DNA of 64,000 bases from Solirubrobacterales bacterium (GTDB lineage Bacteria; Actinomycetota; Thermoleophilia; Solirubrobacterales; 70-9), in the NCBI GenBank assembly GCA_035573435.1, contig DATMZR010000007.1:1-64000 (forward strand), in the 5' to 3' direction. This document shows positions 38,919 to 44,090 of this stretch, piece after piece. The position numbers and the translations under genes were made by a program. Numbering within the stretch: position 1 is the stretch's first letter; every line of letters begins with the position of its first letter. The notes beneath the pieces were generated by a model. That model worked only from the letters and a program-made list of their open reading frames with translations, had not been told where the DNA came from and ran no database searches.

Positions 38919-39863
38919 ATGACGCGGATTCCTGCCGCGCGTGATGGAGCCCGCTCGCGTCGTAGCCGCGGCCAGCACGCCGCGGGGTCGACACCGAATC
39001 GTGTCGAGCGACGCGCAAGGACCCATCGCGCCGAGTACACCGAGACAACGGACAGCTTCCAGCTGTTCCTGAACCAGGCTGCCCGCTATCCCCTGCTCAC
39101 CGCCGACGAGGAGATCGACCTGGCGCAGCGGATCGAGCGTGGCGATTTGGAGGCCAAGGAGCGACTGATCAATTCGAACGTGCGGCTGGTGCTGTCGAAC
39201 GCGCGCCGCTATCAGGGCCTGGGACTGTCGATGCAGGACCTGGTCCAGGAGGCGATGCTGGGCTTGATCCGGGCGGCCGAGAAGTTCGACTGGCGCCGCG
39301 GCTACAAGTTCTCTACCTACGCAACGCTCTGGATCCGTCAAGCGATGCAGCGCGGCCTCGACAACACCGGGCGCCCGGTGCGACTGCCCGCCCACGTTGC
39401 CCAGCGGCAGCGAACGGTGAACCGCGTCGCCGCCGAGCTGACTGGGAAGCTGGACCGGGAGCCCACCGACGAGGAGATCGCCGCCGAGGCCGAGCTGCCC
39501 CTCGACGAGGTAGCGGCGATGCGTGACGTGACCCGGGTCACCACCAGCCTCGATGCGCCGGTCACCGAGGACGGCGAGGCCACCCTCGGCGAGCTGCGCG
39601 CCGACGAGGCGCCCCCGGTCGAGGAGCAGATCGCCGACCGCCAGCGCGAGCGCACCGTCGAGTCGGCGCTGTCGAAGCTGCCGGAAACCGAAAGGCGCGT
39701 GATCGAGCTGCGGTTCGGCACCGCCGACGAGCCGGTTGCGAGCCTGCGCGAGGTCGGGCGAGAGCTCGGCGTGACCCAGGAGCGCGTCCGTCAGCTCGAG
39801 GAGAAGGCGCTCAGGCGCCTGGCCGCCGACCGCTCCCTCGCCGCCTGGCGCGAGGCCGCCTGA
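38919..39863 (+). CDS. Sigma-70 family RNA polymerase sigma factor (group 2-like)
   Basis: 314 residues. Directs RNA polymerase to promoters. After a basic, disordered tail (residues 1-45) come region 1.2 (LFLNQAARYPLLTADEEIDL), region 2 (NVRLVLSNARRYQGLGLSMQ, DLVQEAMLGLIRAAEKFDW, YKFSTYATLWIRQAMQR), region 3 (LPAHVAQRQRTVNRVAAEL) and region 4 (RELGVTQERVRQLEEKALRR). No region 1.1, and short for the housekeeping factor, so probably an alternative sigma of the SigA/SigB-like group. No anti-sigma gene is adjacent. Confidence 0.9.
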   Translation: MTRIPAARDGARSRRSRGQHAAGSTPNRVERRARTHRAEYTETTDSFQLFLNQAARYPLLTADEEIDLAQRIERGDLEAKERLINSNVRLVLSNARRYQGLGLSMQDLVQEAMLGLIRAAEKFDWRRGYKFSTYATLWIRQAMQRGLDNTGRPVRLPAHVAQRQRTVNRVAAELTGKLDREPTDEEIAAEAELPLDEVAAMRDVTRVTTSLDAPVTEDGEATLGELRADEAPPVEEQIADRQRERTVESALSKLPETERRVIELRFGTADEPVASLREVGRELGVTQERVRQLEEKALRRLAADRSLAAWREAA

Positions 39864-39894: not shown

Positions 39895-41307
39895 ATGCTG
39901 TCTCGGATGAGGAACCGAATCGACACCGACGAGCTCGCAGTCGCCACGCTCGAAACGCTCGGCGCGGTAGGCGTGGCGACCGGGCTCGTCGCCCTGCTCG
40001 ACGAGGTGGCGCCCGCGACGGGGCTCGGCGTCCTCTACCTGCTGGCCGTGCTGTTCGTCGCCATCCGCCACGGTCAGGTAGCCGCGCTGATCACGGCCGT
40101 GCTCGGCGTCACGACCTTGAACTTCCTGTTCATCGAGCCGCGCTACCGGCTGACGATCTCGGACTCGCACAACGTGGTTGCGCTGGGTGTGTTCCTGATC
40201 GCCGCCCTGGTGGTCGGCCGCCTCGCCGCATTGGCCCGCCGACGGGCGACGGAAGCCGAGCGACGTGCGGTCCTGGCCACAGCGCGCGAGCGGGAGGCAG
40301 CGATCCTCGCCGACGCGGCAGCTTCCGTTCTGGCGGGCGGCAATCTCGAGATCGAGCTGACGAGTCGCGGTGCGACTCTTGATGCGTCCGCCCCGTCCGC
40401 CGTGCGGCTCGGCCTGACCGCTGCGCCCTCCCCGCTTGACGGGGAGCTCGCCGTGCGCCTCCCCGCGAGCCGTCCCGGATGGCTCTACGGCAGACCGGAC
40501 GCTGGCTGGGACCAGCGGAGCCTGGAGCGCCTCGCGGAGGCCCTCGCGCGCCTGATCGACGTCGGGCGGGAGCGCGACCGCGTCGCAGCCCGCTCGGCCG
40601 AAGCGGAGGCCGCCCGCCGCGCGGACGTGGCGAAGACGGCGCTGCTTCACGCGATCTCGCACGATCTTCGATCACCGCTGACCGCGATCACGACCGCCGC
40701 GGCCGGGCTGCGACAGGGCGCGATCGATCCCGACGATCGCGAGGTCCTGCTGACGGCAATTGAGACCGAGTCGGCTCGCCTCGCTCGACTCGTGGACGAC
40801 CTCCTCGACCTGTCGCGAATCGAGGCCGACGCCGTGAACCCCCGGACCGACTGGTGCGACCTCCACGACACCCTGGCCAGCGCGGCGGGCCAGGTGCGGG
40901 CGCACTTCGGTGAGTGCCCCATCAACCTCGAACTGGAACCGGACCTGCCCCTGGTTCGAGGCGACGCCACCCAGCTCGAGCGGGTGTTCTTCAACCTGTT
41001 GGAGAACGCGGTCAAGTTCTCCCCTGAAGGCGCACCGGTGCGAATCGGTGGCACGGTGGCCGCAGGCAAGGTCACGATCACCATCACCGACCAGGGCAGG
41101 GGCATTCCGCGCTCGAAACGCGCCGAGATCTTCGAGCCCTTCGTTCGCGGCGGCGACGGTGGCGGGGGATCTGGCCTCGGGCTGGCCATCTGCCGCGGCC
41201 TGGTGAAGGCAAACGGTGGCGAGATCCGCCTCCAAAGCGGCACGGATCGGGGGACCACATTCGCAGTCTCGTTTCCACTCGTCTCCCAGCCGGCGGAGGT
41301 GCCGTGA
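39895..41307 (+). CDS. KdpD-like sensor histidine kinase lacking the KdpD/USP N-terminus
   Basis: 470 residues. Residues 15-112 form a DUF4118 four-helix membrane domain (ATGLGVLYLLAVLFVAIRHG, LNFLFIEPRYRLTISDS), the part that KdpD uses in the membrane. A linker and coiled coil lead to the kinase: H256 in LLHAISHDLRSPLTAI, N box FFNLLENAVKF, G1 DQGRGIPRS and G2 GGSGLGLAICRGLV. The approximately 370-residue cytoplasmic KdpD-plus-USP part of full KdpD is absent, as in other truncated KdpD-like kinases. Overlaps its response regulator as GTGA. No kdpFABC in the window. Confidence 0.9.
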   Translation: MLSRMRNRIDTDELAVATLETLGAVGVATGLVALLDEVAPATGLGVLYLLAVLFVAIRHGQVAALITAVLGVTTLNFLFIEPRYRLTISDSHNVVALGVFLIAALVVGRLAALARRRATEAERRAVLATAREREAAILADAAASVLAGGNLEIELTSRGATLDASAPSAVRLGLTAAPSPLDGELAVRLPASRPGWLYGRPDAGWDQRSLERLAEALARLIDVGRERDRVAARSAEAEAARRADVAKTALLHAISHDLRSPLTAITTAAAGLRQGAIDPDDREVLLTAIETESARLARLVDDLLDLSRIEADAVNPRTDWCDLHDTLASAAGQVRAHFGECPINLELEPDLPLVRGDATQLERVFFNLLENAVKFSPEGAPVRIGGTVAAGKVTITITDQGRGIPRSKRAEIFEPFVRGGDGGGGSGLGLAICRGLVKANGGEIRLQSGTDRGTTFAVSFPLVSQPAEVP

Positions 41308-41987
41308 ACGAACGGGTCCTGGTCGTCGACGACGAGCCACAGATCGTTCGGGCGCTCAAAGTCATCCTGCGCAGCGCGGGATACGTCACCGAGGCGGCTG
41401 AGTCCAAGGAGGAGGCCTTGAACGCGGTCGCGGTGCGGCCGCCCGACGCCATGGTGCTGGACCTCGTCCTGCCGGACGGCAGCGGAGTCGAGGTGTGCGC
41501 CGACGTGCGGCGATGGAGCAGCCTGCCGATCATCGTCCTGTCCGCGATCGGCGACGAGCGCGAGAAAGTGCGGGCGCTCGACGCCGGCGCTGACGACTAC
41601 GTCACCAAACCCTTCGGCACCGACGAATTGCTCGCCCGCCTGAGGGCGGCCCTGCGCCGCGCGACGGAGGACGGCGGAGGCCCGAGGATCACGATTGGCG
41701 AGCTGACCGTCGATGTCGCGGCCAGGGTCGTGACCCGCGGCGAAACCGAGGTCCACCTGACGCCGATCGAGTTCGACCTGCTCAGGGTGCTCGCGCAGCA
41801 CCGCGGCCGACTGGTAACCCAGCGCCAGCTCCTGCACGAGGTCTGGGGGCCGGGCTACGAGACCGAGACCCACTACCTGCGCGTTCACATCGCTCACATC
41901 CGCTCGAAGCTCGAGCCCGAGCCCTCGCGGCCGCGTTACCTGATCACCGAACCGGGGGTCGGCTACCGGCTGCGGGACGACCTGTAG
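41304..41987 (+). CDS. KdpE-like OmpR-family response regulator
   Basis: 227 residues from GTG. Receiver domain with acidic pair DD near residue 10, phospho-acceptor D53 in MVLDLVLPDGSG and Lys in DDYVTKPFGT. The C-terminal winged helix has VHLTPIEFDLLRVLAQHRGR, THYLRVHIAHIRSKLE and YLITEPGVGYRL, which matches KdpE closely. The likely output is the permease gene 120 bp downstream, given the tandem repeat there. Confidence 0.92.
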   Translation: MNERVLVVDDEPQIVRALKVILRSAGYVTEAAESKEEALNAVAVRPPDAMVLDLVLPDGSGVEVCADVRRWSSLPIIVLSAIGDEREKVRALDAGADDYVTKPFGTDELLARLRAALRRATEDGGGPRITIGELTVDVAARVVTRGETEVHLTPIEFDLLRVLAQHRGRLVTQRQLLHEVWGPGYETETHYLRVHIAHIRSKLEPEPSRPRYLITEPGVGYRLRDDL

Positions 41988-42027
41988 GCGCGTTCTTAGC
42001 GAAATCTCTACGCCCGCGGGCGACGAT

Positions 42028-42049
42028 TTAGCGCCCGCTTAACGCCCGC
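42028..42049 (+). promoter_or_regulatory. Tandem 11-bp repeat, candidate response-regulator site
   Basis: TTAGCGCCCGC (42028-42038) is followed at once by TTAACGCCCGC (42039-42049), ten of eleven bases identical. OmpR-family regulators bind such direct repeats one helical turn apart. A third TTAGCG lies at 41996-42001. The repeat is 62 bp upstream of the permease ATG. Confidence 0.5.
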
Positions 42050-42110
42050 CGCCCGACCATCAGGGTGAGATGCCTGCACCCATCACAAGCGGGCGGTCAC
42101 CGGAGGCGCA

Positions 42111-44090
42111 ATGGCGCAGCTGAAGGAGCGCGGCCTGCGGCGAAGCGTCGGGGTTCCCGGCCTGTTCGCCACCGCCTACGGCAACGTGGGCTCGTCGATC
42201 TACTACGCGCTCGGCCTGGTCGCCGCCCACGCCCTCGGCCTCACCCCGCTGGTCTTCATCTTCGCCGGTGGCCTGTTCGCCCTGACCGCGAAGACCTATG
42301 CCGAGGGCGCCTCGATGTTCCCGGAGGCCGGCGGCTCCTCGTCGTTCGCTCGTCACGCCTTCAACGAGGTGGTGTCATTCTTCGCCGGCTGGGGGCTGTC
42401 GCTCGACTACATCATCACGGTGGCGATCAGCGCCTTCTTCGTCCCCCACTACCTGTCCGTCTTCTTTCCTGCCCTTGGACACGGGCCTGGCGACGTGATC
42501 GGCGGAGCGGTCGTGATCGCCGTCCTGGCCCTGCTCAACATCCGTGGGATCGGCGAGTCGACACGCCTGAACATCTTCCTCGCGATCACTGATCTGCTTA
42601 CCCAGATCGCGCTCGTCGTCCTCGGCGCCGTGCTGATCCTCGACCCCGCGCTCCTCGTTCGTCAGGTTCACCTCGGGGTGGCTCCGAGCTACAGCCAGCT
42701 TTTGTTTGCCGTCTCGATCTCGATGATCGCCTACACGGGGATCGAGACCGTCTCCAATATGGCCGAGGAGGCGCGGGATCCGGGCAAGGACGTGCCGCAA
42801 ACGGTCAACTACGTCCTCTTTGCCGTTCTCGGCATCTTCGCCGGGATCTCGATCGTCTCGATCGTGGCCCTGCCGGTCACCCAGGACGCAGCCGGCCACT
42901 ACTCGACCCAGCTCGGCACCACCTATAAGGACGACCCGGTGCTGGGGATCGTCTCAGCCCTCCACCTGCATGGGGCAGTCGAGACGGCGGCCCGCTACTA
43001 CATCGGCATCCTCGCGGCGACGATCCTGATCATCGCCACCAACGCTGGGCTGATTGGGATCTCGCGACTCTCGTGGTCGCTCTCAGAGCATCGCCAGCTT
43101 CCCGGGGCCTTTTGCCAGCTCCACGAGCGCTACCGCACCCCGTGGTTCACGATCGCTTTCTTCTCGCTCATCGCAATGATCCTGCTGATCCCGGGCCAGA
43201 CCGACTTCCTGGGAAACCTCTACAGCTTCGGGGCGATGCTCTCGTTCACGGTCGCCCACGTTTCGATCATCGCTCTGCGCCTTCGCGACCCTCGCCGCGA
43301 CCGCCCCTACCGAGCGCCCTGGAACGTGGCGATCAGGGGCAAGCCCGTGCCGATGACGGCTGTGCTGGGCGCTCTGGGAACCGGAGCCGCCTTCGTCTCG
43401 GTGGTCGTCCTTCATGACGAGGCACGCTACGTTGGTACCGGCTGGATGCTGGTCGGGATGGCCGGCTACCTCATCTACCGCCGCCGCCACGGCCTCGATC
43501 CGCGCCGCCAGTACCGGATCGAGCGTCCCCAGCGCCCGCTCGGCTTCTACGAGGTCGCGTACCGCTCCGCCCTGGTCCCGATCTTGGGCACCGATGTCAA
43601 CACGGAGGCCATGGCACGGGCCGCGAAGCTGGTCGGACCTGACGCCGAGGTCGAGGCCTTGTACGTCCTGGCCGTCCCCCGCGAGCTCGAGCTCGGGGAC
43701 GGGATGGCCGAGGAAGAGGAGCTGGCTCGCAACGTGCTCGAGGTCGCGCGCCTTCAGGGCCGTGCTCGACATCTCAAGGTCCGCGTCAGGCTGATCCGCA
43801 CCCGCAATCCGGGCGCGGCGATCGTCGAGGAAGCGATCGAGCGACACTCCGACCTGATCTACATCAGCACCGAGCACGGCGCCAGCAACGGTGAGCGCCT
43901 GCTCGGGCCCACCAGCCGCTACGTGCTCGCCAACCGTCCCTGCCGGATCGTGGTCGAGGGCGGAAACGCGGACTTCCCTCACGAGTCGACTACGGTCAAC
44001 TCCTTTGGGAAGCTGCTGAAGTTTCGGCAGCCGTCGTCGGCGACGGTCACCAGGTCCTCGATCCGGACTCCCAGCCGGCCGGGGAGGTAG
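42111..44090 (+). CDS. APC superfamily permease with C-terminal USP-like domain
   Basis: 659 residues from ATG after GGAGG. Residues 10-460 are about twelve helices of the APC fold: TAYGNVGSSIYYALGLVAAH, AEGASMFPEAGGSSSFARHA, ISMIAYTGIETVSNMAEEAR and DPGKDVP. Residues about 500-625 resemble a universal stress protein: a first strand ALVPILGTDVNTEAM, AIVEEAIERHSDLIYISTEH and LGPTSRYVLANRPCRIVV. KimA-type potassium importers share this layout. With KdpDE-like genes beside it, potassium or an amino acid are both possible substrates. The last 37 residues read antisense through the pepP end. Confidence 0.88.
   Translation: MAQLKERGLRRSVGVPGLFATAYGNVGSSIYYALGLVAAHALGLTPLVFIFAGGLFALTAKTYAEGASMFPEAGGSSSFARHAFNEVVSFFAGWGLSLDYIITVAISAFFVPHYLSVFFPALGHGPGDVIGGAVVIAVLALLNIRGIGESTRLNIFLAITDLLTQIALVVLGAVLILDPALLVRQVHLGVAPSYSQLLFAVSISMIAYTGIETVSNMAEEARDPGKDVPQTVNYVLFAVLGIFAGISIVSIVALPVTQDAAGHYSTQLGTTYKDDPVLGIVSALHLHGAVETAARYYIGILAATILIIATNAGLIGISRLSWSLSEHRQLPGAFCQLHERYRTPWFTIAFFSLIAMILLIPGQTDFLGNLYSFGAMLSFTVAHVSIIALRLRDPRRDRPYRAPWNVAIRGKPVPMTAVLGALGTGAAFVSVVVLHDEARYVGTGWMLVGMAGYLIYRRRHGLDPRRQYRIERPQRPLGFYEVAYRSALVPILGTDVNTEAMARAAKLVGPDAEVEALYVLAVPRELELGDGMAEEEELARNVLEVARLQGRARHLKVRVRLIRTRNPGAAIVEEAIERHSDLIYISTEHGASNGERLLGPTSRYVLANRPCRIVVEGGNADFPHESTTVNSFGKLLKFRQPSSATVTRSSIRTPSRPGR

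What the first reader, a model, noticed from the sequence alone, without database searches (positions are those of the whole stretch)
39895..44090. Split KdpD logic: truncated kinase beside a permease that carries a USP-like domain
Full KdpD has a cytoplasmic KdpD + USP part before DUF4118. Here the kinase starts at DUF4118, and a USP-like domain is instead fused to the APC permease encoded 120 bp after the KdpE-like regulator. KimA-type potassium importers have this permease-plus-USP layout and bind cyclic di-AMP through it. The three genes could form a potassium (or solute) sensing and uptake module in which the nucleotide sensor sits on the transporter. Substrate and signal are inference.
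Basis: partly seen in the sequence, partly recalled or inferred. Interest (0 to 1): 0.6.

Follow-up and report, generated by a model that had tools for sequence, protein, structure and literature searches.

The report
Potassium-starvation switch driving a stress-domain permease
In a soil bacterium that lacks the usual potassium pump, the pump's two-component switch sits in front of a membrane transporter carrying a stress-protein domain, and the same DNA control site is found in front of the pump genes of related bacteria, so the transporter very probably belongs to the cell's response to potassium shortage.

Summary
A 470-aa kinase (DUF4118-HisKA-HATPase) lacks the KdpD and USP parts. A KdpE-like regulator overlaps it, and an APC permease with a C-terminal USP domain follows. 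In this order (Solirubrobacterales) KdpD is split throughout: kinase half + KdpE + kdpABC + a separate KdpD-N. The window genome has no KdpA and no KdpD-N. The same kinase/regulator type sits beside this permease in 9 of 151 sampled genomes, in several separate branches of the kinase tree. I found a 50-bp operator in the regulator-permease gap: four CTTNACG half-sites at 0/11/32/43, then a -10-like box. Derived from permease promoters alone, it recurs upstream of kdpA (29/40; reversed control 0/40). It also precedes permeases not linked to the regulator. It occurs once in the window's genome. So the permease belongs to a KdpE-type regulon shared with kdpFABC. K+ as substrate is likely but unproven: four KimA TM6/TM10 residues are conserved, but the key Asp appears to be Asn, and amino-acid carriers are closer overall. 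Cyclic di-AMP control is not supported by motif.

The parts
39895..41307 (+). sensor histidine kinase, C-terminal half of KdpD type (DUF4118-HisKA-HATPase_c), 470 aa
   Evidence: kinase tree
39955..40266 (+). DUF4118 membrane sensor domain (residues 21-124), the only DUF4118 in the genome
41304..41987 (+). KdpE-like OmpR-family response regulator, 227 aa, overlaps the kinase stop codon
41995..42044 (+). operator: four CTTNACG-type half-sites at 41995, 42006, 42027 and 42038; the only full site in the genome; shared with kdp promoters of relatives
42055..42060 (+). -10-like hexamer GACCAT, 10 bp after the last half-site, same position in kdp promoters
42102..42106 (+). Shine-Dalgarno-like GGAGG before the permease ATG
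   Evidence: read directly from sequence
42111..44090 (+). APC-superfamily permease with C-terminal USP domain, 659 aa
43560..43955 (+). USP domain of the permease (residues 484-615)

Best explanation
This is a KdpDE-type two-component system whose target is an APC-USP permease instead of, or in relatives in addition to, kdpFABC. Under potassium limitation the DUF4118 kinase phosphorylates the KdpE-like regulator (inferred from KdpD/KdpE). The regulator binds two pairs of 11-bp-spaced direct repeats at 41995-42044 and activates the promoter whose -10 lies 10 bp further on (the site is shown by comparison; binding and activation are inferred). The permease then takes up potassium as a secondary, proton-driven carrier, and its USP domain adjusts activity to a nucleotide or to cell state (substrate, coupling and ligand are inferred). 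In this genome it would be the inducible potassium system next to one Kup, because kdpA and trkH were not found. Estimated confidence: membership of the KdpE-type regulon about 0.9; potassium as the transported ion about 0.6.
For: Linkage: 73 DUF4118 loci above cut-off in 151 genomes; 44 within 8.5 kb of KdpA and 9 beside this permease. Of 8 DUF4118 genomes lacking KdpA, 7 have the kinase beside the permease and the eighth has the regulator beside it at a contig end. Repeated association: permease-linked kinases need 6 label changes on the kinase tree, at least 5 forced by supported branches (at least 4 in the first, smaller tree), several nested among kdp-linked kinases. Operator: built only from permease promoters, then found upstream of kdpA in 29/40 (shuffles at most 16 of 24; reversed control 0/40). 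Order-wide, 47 sites versus 4 control sites: 26 upstream of kdpA, 11 upstream of this permease (four of them, in G080, G108, G114 and G128, at permeases not linked to the kinase) and 1 upstream of a Kup transporter. Exactly one site in the 2.58-Mb own genome at up to 3 mismatches, control 0. The same -10 position follows in 22 permease and 24 kdp promoters. E. coli KdpE half-sites TTTATA/TTTACA have the same 11-bp period (PMC3264566). The permease lies directly beside whole kdp operons in L124 and L128 and in the kdp locus of Conexibacter sp. DBS9H8. KimA T230, E233, N237 and Y377 are identical in the permease. Own genome: no KdpA, no TrkH, one Kup.
Against: No transport, binding or expression data. 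KimA Asp36, essential for K+ uptake (PMC6994465), appears as Asn25, invariant in the close family, though the TM1 alignment to KimA is uncertain. SLC7 amino-acid carriers score better than KimA, and a profile comparison with Kup is not significant. About half of the close relatives in the sample are not next to the regulator, and a Solirubrobacteraceae group lacks the operator. The genomes are mostly MAGs and not independent of one another.
Confidence: 0.68

Rival explanations
1. The permease is in the potassium-limitation regulon but imports an organic solute (amino acid, polyamine or other cation) that stands in for, or balances, missing potassium.
For: Best solved relatives are SLC7 amino-acid carriers and CAT4. 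The key KimA Asp is Asn. Haloarchaeal APC-UspA fusions are annotated as amino-acid transporters (PMC3102087).
Against: Residues of the KimA TM6/TM10 site (T209, E212, N216, Y371) are kept, while aligned CAT4 has Ile, Asp, Ser and Val there. The main other operator targets found are kdpA and a Kup, both K+ transport genes.
Confidence: 0.25
2. The permease is a transporter-like co-sensor: its USP domain takes over the part of the missing KdpD-N/USP protein and controls the kinase rather than, or besides, transporting.
For: KdpD-N is absent from this genome but present in kdp-carrying relatives. The kinase gene is often flanked by one or two such permeases.
Against: Permeases of the same family occur in genomes with KdpD-N and without any linked kinase. 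Putative transport-site residues are invariant. No interaction evidence.
Confidence: 0.1
3. Chance or merely historical adjacency: the regulator controls something else and the permease is unrelated.
For: About half of the close permeases are unlinked.
Against: Unique operator directly before the permease, the same operator before unlinked permeases, repeated linkage.
Confidence: 0.03

Closest known systems
Split KdpD/KdpE-kdp system of Deinococcus radiodurans (SK + RR beside kdpBAC + kdpD-N; PMC5716572)
   Same: Kinase is the C-terminal half of KdpD, with its own regulator; direct counterpart of the kdp-linked loci of this order
   Different: No kdpA and no KdpD-N in the window genome; the regulator's operator lies before an APC-USP permease
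KimA, K+/H+ symporter of the KUP family (PMC6994465, PMC10284832)
   Same: APC-fold membrane domain plus cytosolic a/b domain; T230, E233, N237 and Y377 conserved
   Different: Asp36 probably replaced by Asn; Arg337 absent; C-terminal domain matches Usp, whereas KimA's is PPAT-like; overall closer to SLC7; preceded by a two-component operator, with no c-di-AMP riboswitch near it
Haloarchaeal APC transporters fused to UspA (PMC3102087)
   Same: APC permease with a fused USP domain
   Different: Assigned to amino acids; no Kdp-type regulation reported there
E. coli KdpE operator (PMC3264566)
   Same: Direct repeats with 11-bp period, TTTACA-like half-site
   Different: Four GC-richer half-sites in two pairs instead of one AT-rich pair

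Membership tests
KdpD/KdpE two-component system | DUF4118 membrane domain followed by HisKA and HATPase_c | tested here: met
KdpD/KdpE two-component system | Cytosolic KdpD (PF02702) and USP part, in one protein or as a separate KdpD-N | tested here: not met
   absent from the kinase and from the 97%-complete genome
KdpD/KdpE two-component system | KdpE-type regulator | tested here: inconclusive
   best NCBIfam model KdpE, 256 bits, under the 325-bit cut-off; C-terminal DNA-binding region aligns with E. coli KdpE
KdpD/KdpE two-component system | kdpFABC as target | tested here: not met
   no KdpA in the genome
KdpD/KdpE two-component system | 11-bp-period direct-repeat operator shared with kdp promoters | tested here: met
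KdpD/KdpE two-component system | Induction by low K+ | not testable with these tools
   needs expression data
KimA (KUP-family K+/H+ symporter) | TM6 and TM10 K+/H+ residues T230, E233, Y377 | tested here: met
   identical at T209, E212, Y371
KimA (KUP-family K+/H+ symporter) | Essential TM1 Asp36 | tested here: inconclusive
   Asn25 by alignment with Kup Asp23 and close to the TM1 break in the model; direct KimA alignment of TM1 ambiguous
KimA (KUP-family K+/H+ symporter) | Closest overall relationship to KimA/KUP | tested here: not met
   SLC7 proteins outrank KimA; Kup profile comparison not significant
KimA (KUP-family K+/H+ symporter) | c-di-AMP contact Arg337 | tested here: not met
   aligns with Gly332
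KimA (KUP-family K+/H+ symporter) | K+ transport | not testable with these tools
   needs uptake assay
c-di-AMP-binding KdpD-USP | (A/G/C)XSXSX2N(Y/F) motif | tested here: not met
   no match in the permease nor in four KdpD-N proteins of relatives (motif from PMC8214093)
APC-USP fusion permeases | APC permease domain plus C-terminal Usp domain | tested here: met

The most novel reading that the evidence does not exclude
A KdpDE branch that has lost its ATP-driven pump and its cytosolic KdpD-USP sensor, and in which a USP-bearing secondary permease takes both places: it is the regulated uptake system and carries the nucleotide-sensing domain on the transporter itself. This would have evolved several times within one bacterial order through a shared KdpE operator.
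Probability: 0.3. Interest if true: 0.75.

Novelty: new variant of a known kind. Interest (0 to 1): 0.62.

Why it matters
In the papers read here KdpDE controls kdpFABC; I found no report of a KdpE-type regulon that includes an APC-USP permease. A shared operator gives this poorly annotated permease group a physiological role (potassium limitation), predicts which relatives are in the regulon from DNA alone, and makes the function of a transporter-fused USP domain testable. It also offers a KdpE box for an actinobacterial order outside Mycobacterium.

Tried and rejected
c-di-AMP riboswitch near the permease: the genome has 10 such riboswitches, but none is in the window or in 22 relative loci. 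A KdpD-N half elsewhere in the genome: none. KimA family by overall similarity: not best. KUP family by profile comparison: not significant, so residue mapping through Kup is treated as weak. TM1 mapping to KimA: ambiguous. G006 was first counted as permease-linked, but its kinase has no DUF4118, so it was dropped from the second tree. The first tree script failed for a technical reason. A plasmid search for a named KimA homologue gave only distant APC permeases under 30% identity. Operator sites outside kdpA, permease, Kup and CorA had no recognisable downstream gene in the ORFs scanned and may be chance, since the control pattern gave 4.

Full report
What is there. The window carries, on the + strand, a 470-aa histidine kinase (39895-41307) with DUF4118, HisKA and HATPase_c, a KdpE-like OmpR-family regulator (41304-41987) whose start overlaps the kinase stop, and a 659-aa APC permease with a C-terminal Usp domain (42111-44090). 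A sigma-factor gene ends at 39863, so the kinase is truly short. The AlphaFold2 model of the permease (42 aligned sequences, mean pLDDT 87.8) has a helical membrane domain and a five-strand, four-helix C-domain at 486-616; the last ~40 residues are of low confidence.

Where it is. Close relatives are Solirubrobacterales (Thermoleophilia), mostly MAGs, plus the complete genome of Conexibacter sp. DBS9H8. The window's assembly has 2.58 Mb in 43 contigs and is 97% complete. It has one DUF4118, no KdpA, no KdpD-N, no TrkH, one Kup, one diadenylate cyclase and ten c-di-AMP riboswitches. Two paralogous APC-type permeases of the same length stand in tandem elsewhere.

The truncated kinase is not peculiar to this locus. 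In 151 genomes of the order, 44 of 73 DUF4118 loci above the cut-off are within 8.5 kb of KdpA. Those kinases are mostly short too, and the KdpD-N half is a separate gene downstream of kdpACB. That split is known from Deinococcus and cyanobacteria (PMC5716572). What is peculiar is that in nine genomes the kinase lies beside the window-type permease, and seven of these lack KdpA. Of eight DUF4118 genomes without KdpA, seven have the kinase beside the permease; in the eighth (G052) the permease contig ends in the regulator gene. A Fisher test on these approximate genome counts gives p about 6e-7, with the caution that related genomes are not independent. Further loci from genome contigs show PERM-PERM-HK-RR-PERM clusters (L134, L135 and others), a permease directly beside a divergent kdpBCA-RR-HK unit (L124), and a permease convergent with kdpABC-KdpD-N (L128).

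Repeated association. On a 47-row kinase tree the permease-linked label needs 6 changes, at least 5 forced by well supported branches (at least 4 in the first, 36-row tree); examples are G014 with kdp-linked G018, G066 with G133, and the G127/G105 clade. The window's own clade of 10 is permease-linked throughout. This regulator family has therefore come to lie beside the same permease family several times; some of these changes could be losses of kdp from a locus that once held both, as in Conexibacter sp. DBS9H8 today.

The operator. Aligning promoters of linked permeases showed a fixed 50-bp block: four CTTNACG-like half-sites at offsets 0, 11, 32 and 43 (window 41995-42044), scoring 18-23 of 24 in 15 of 17 where shuffles reach at most 15. 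I then looked where it had not been trained. Upstream of kdpA, 29 of 40 genomes score at least 17; the reversed control 0 of 40; shuffles at most 16. Order-wide with up to 2 mismatches there are 47 sites against 4 for the reversed pattern; 26 lie upstream of kdpA, 11 upstream of this permease, 1 upstream of a Kup K+ transporter and 1 upstream of a CorA-like gene. Four of the permease sites are in genomes where the permease is not linked to the kinase: in G080, G108 and G128 the kinase sits with kdp, and G114 has kdpA but no DUF4118 was found in its assembly. In the window's genome the site occurs once, before the permease. Behind the last half-site a -10-like hexamer stands at the same 10-bp distance in 22 permease and 24 kdp promoters; from my own knowledge this is the geometry of PhoB-type activation. 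E. coli KdpE uses TTTATA-N5-TTTACA, also an 11-bp period (PMC3264566); the M. smegmatis box is reported as different (PMC5401905). I conclude that the permease is a member of a KdpE-type regulon.

What it transports. For potassium: the regulon, and the identity of KimA T230, E233 (proton coupling), N237 and Y377 with T209, E212, N216 and Y371 (roles from PMC6994465), all invariant in 21 close homologues except that Y371 is read from the invariant list of the same alignment. The aligned CAT4 amino-acid carrier has Ile, Asp, Ser and Val there. Against: KimA Asp36, essential for K+ uptake, corresponds to Asn25 by the Kup alignment, though TM1 is not reliably aligned, and SLC7 carriers are closer overall. 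I hold potassium at about 0.6 and an organic solute at about 0.25.

The USP domain. It matches Pfam Usp clearly and solved USPs weakly. The KdpD-USP c-di-AMP motif (PMC8214093) is absent and KimA's Arg337 is not conserved. The KimA C-domain is described as PPAT-like (PMC10284832). A nucleotide ligand remains possible, but c-di-AMP is not favoured by these tests. APC-UspA fusions are known in haloarchaea (PMC3102087), so the fusion itself is not new.

Verdict. Observation confirmed. Interpretation partly supported: a potassium-responsive module is now well supported at the level of regulation; split KdpD is an order-wide trait; c-di-AMP control is not supported; substrate unproven. Literature searches found no report of an APC-USP permease in a KdpE regulon, within the open-access library searched.

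Noticed in passing
L125, L126, L128, L133, L141, L145, L152, upstream of the permease: In Solirubrobacteraceae the permease lacks the KdpE-type operator but shares another conserved block (GTCGGGATCATA..., and TGCA...GGGATTTTGCA...), suggesting a different regulator.
   Followed up: partly
L238:100-149 (G101:C124:19599-19648): A near-perfect copy of the operator lies upstream of a Kup K+ transporter gene.
   Followed up: yes
L245:128-177 (G147:C105:36727-36776): The operator lies upstream of a CorA-like transporter gene, next to a kdp locus.
   Followed up: partly
window genome G000: Ten c-di-AMP (ydaO) riboswitches above the gathering score in a 2.6-Mb genome, none in the window; downstream genes not examined.
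   Followed up: no
window 43979-44090: The permease 3' end overlaps the convergent M24 aminopeptidase gene by 112 bp; the overlapping permease tail (residues ~621-659) has very low confidence in the model.
   Followed up: no
window 38919-39863: A sigma-70 family factor gene ends 31 bp before the kinase on the same strand; whether it is co-transcribed or part of the response was not tested.
   Followed up: no
L158, L177, L192: MAG records titled Bifidobacterium breve carry a permease ~50% identical to the window's, like those of Thermoleophilia; they are probably mislabelled.
   Followed up: no
L132, L134: The permease is flanked by two kinase+regulator pairs of different kinase clades, one on each side.
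   Followed up: partly
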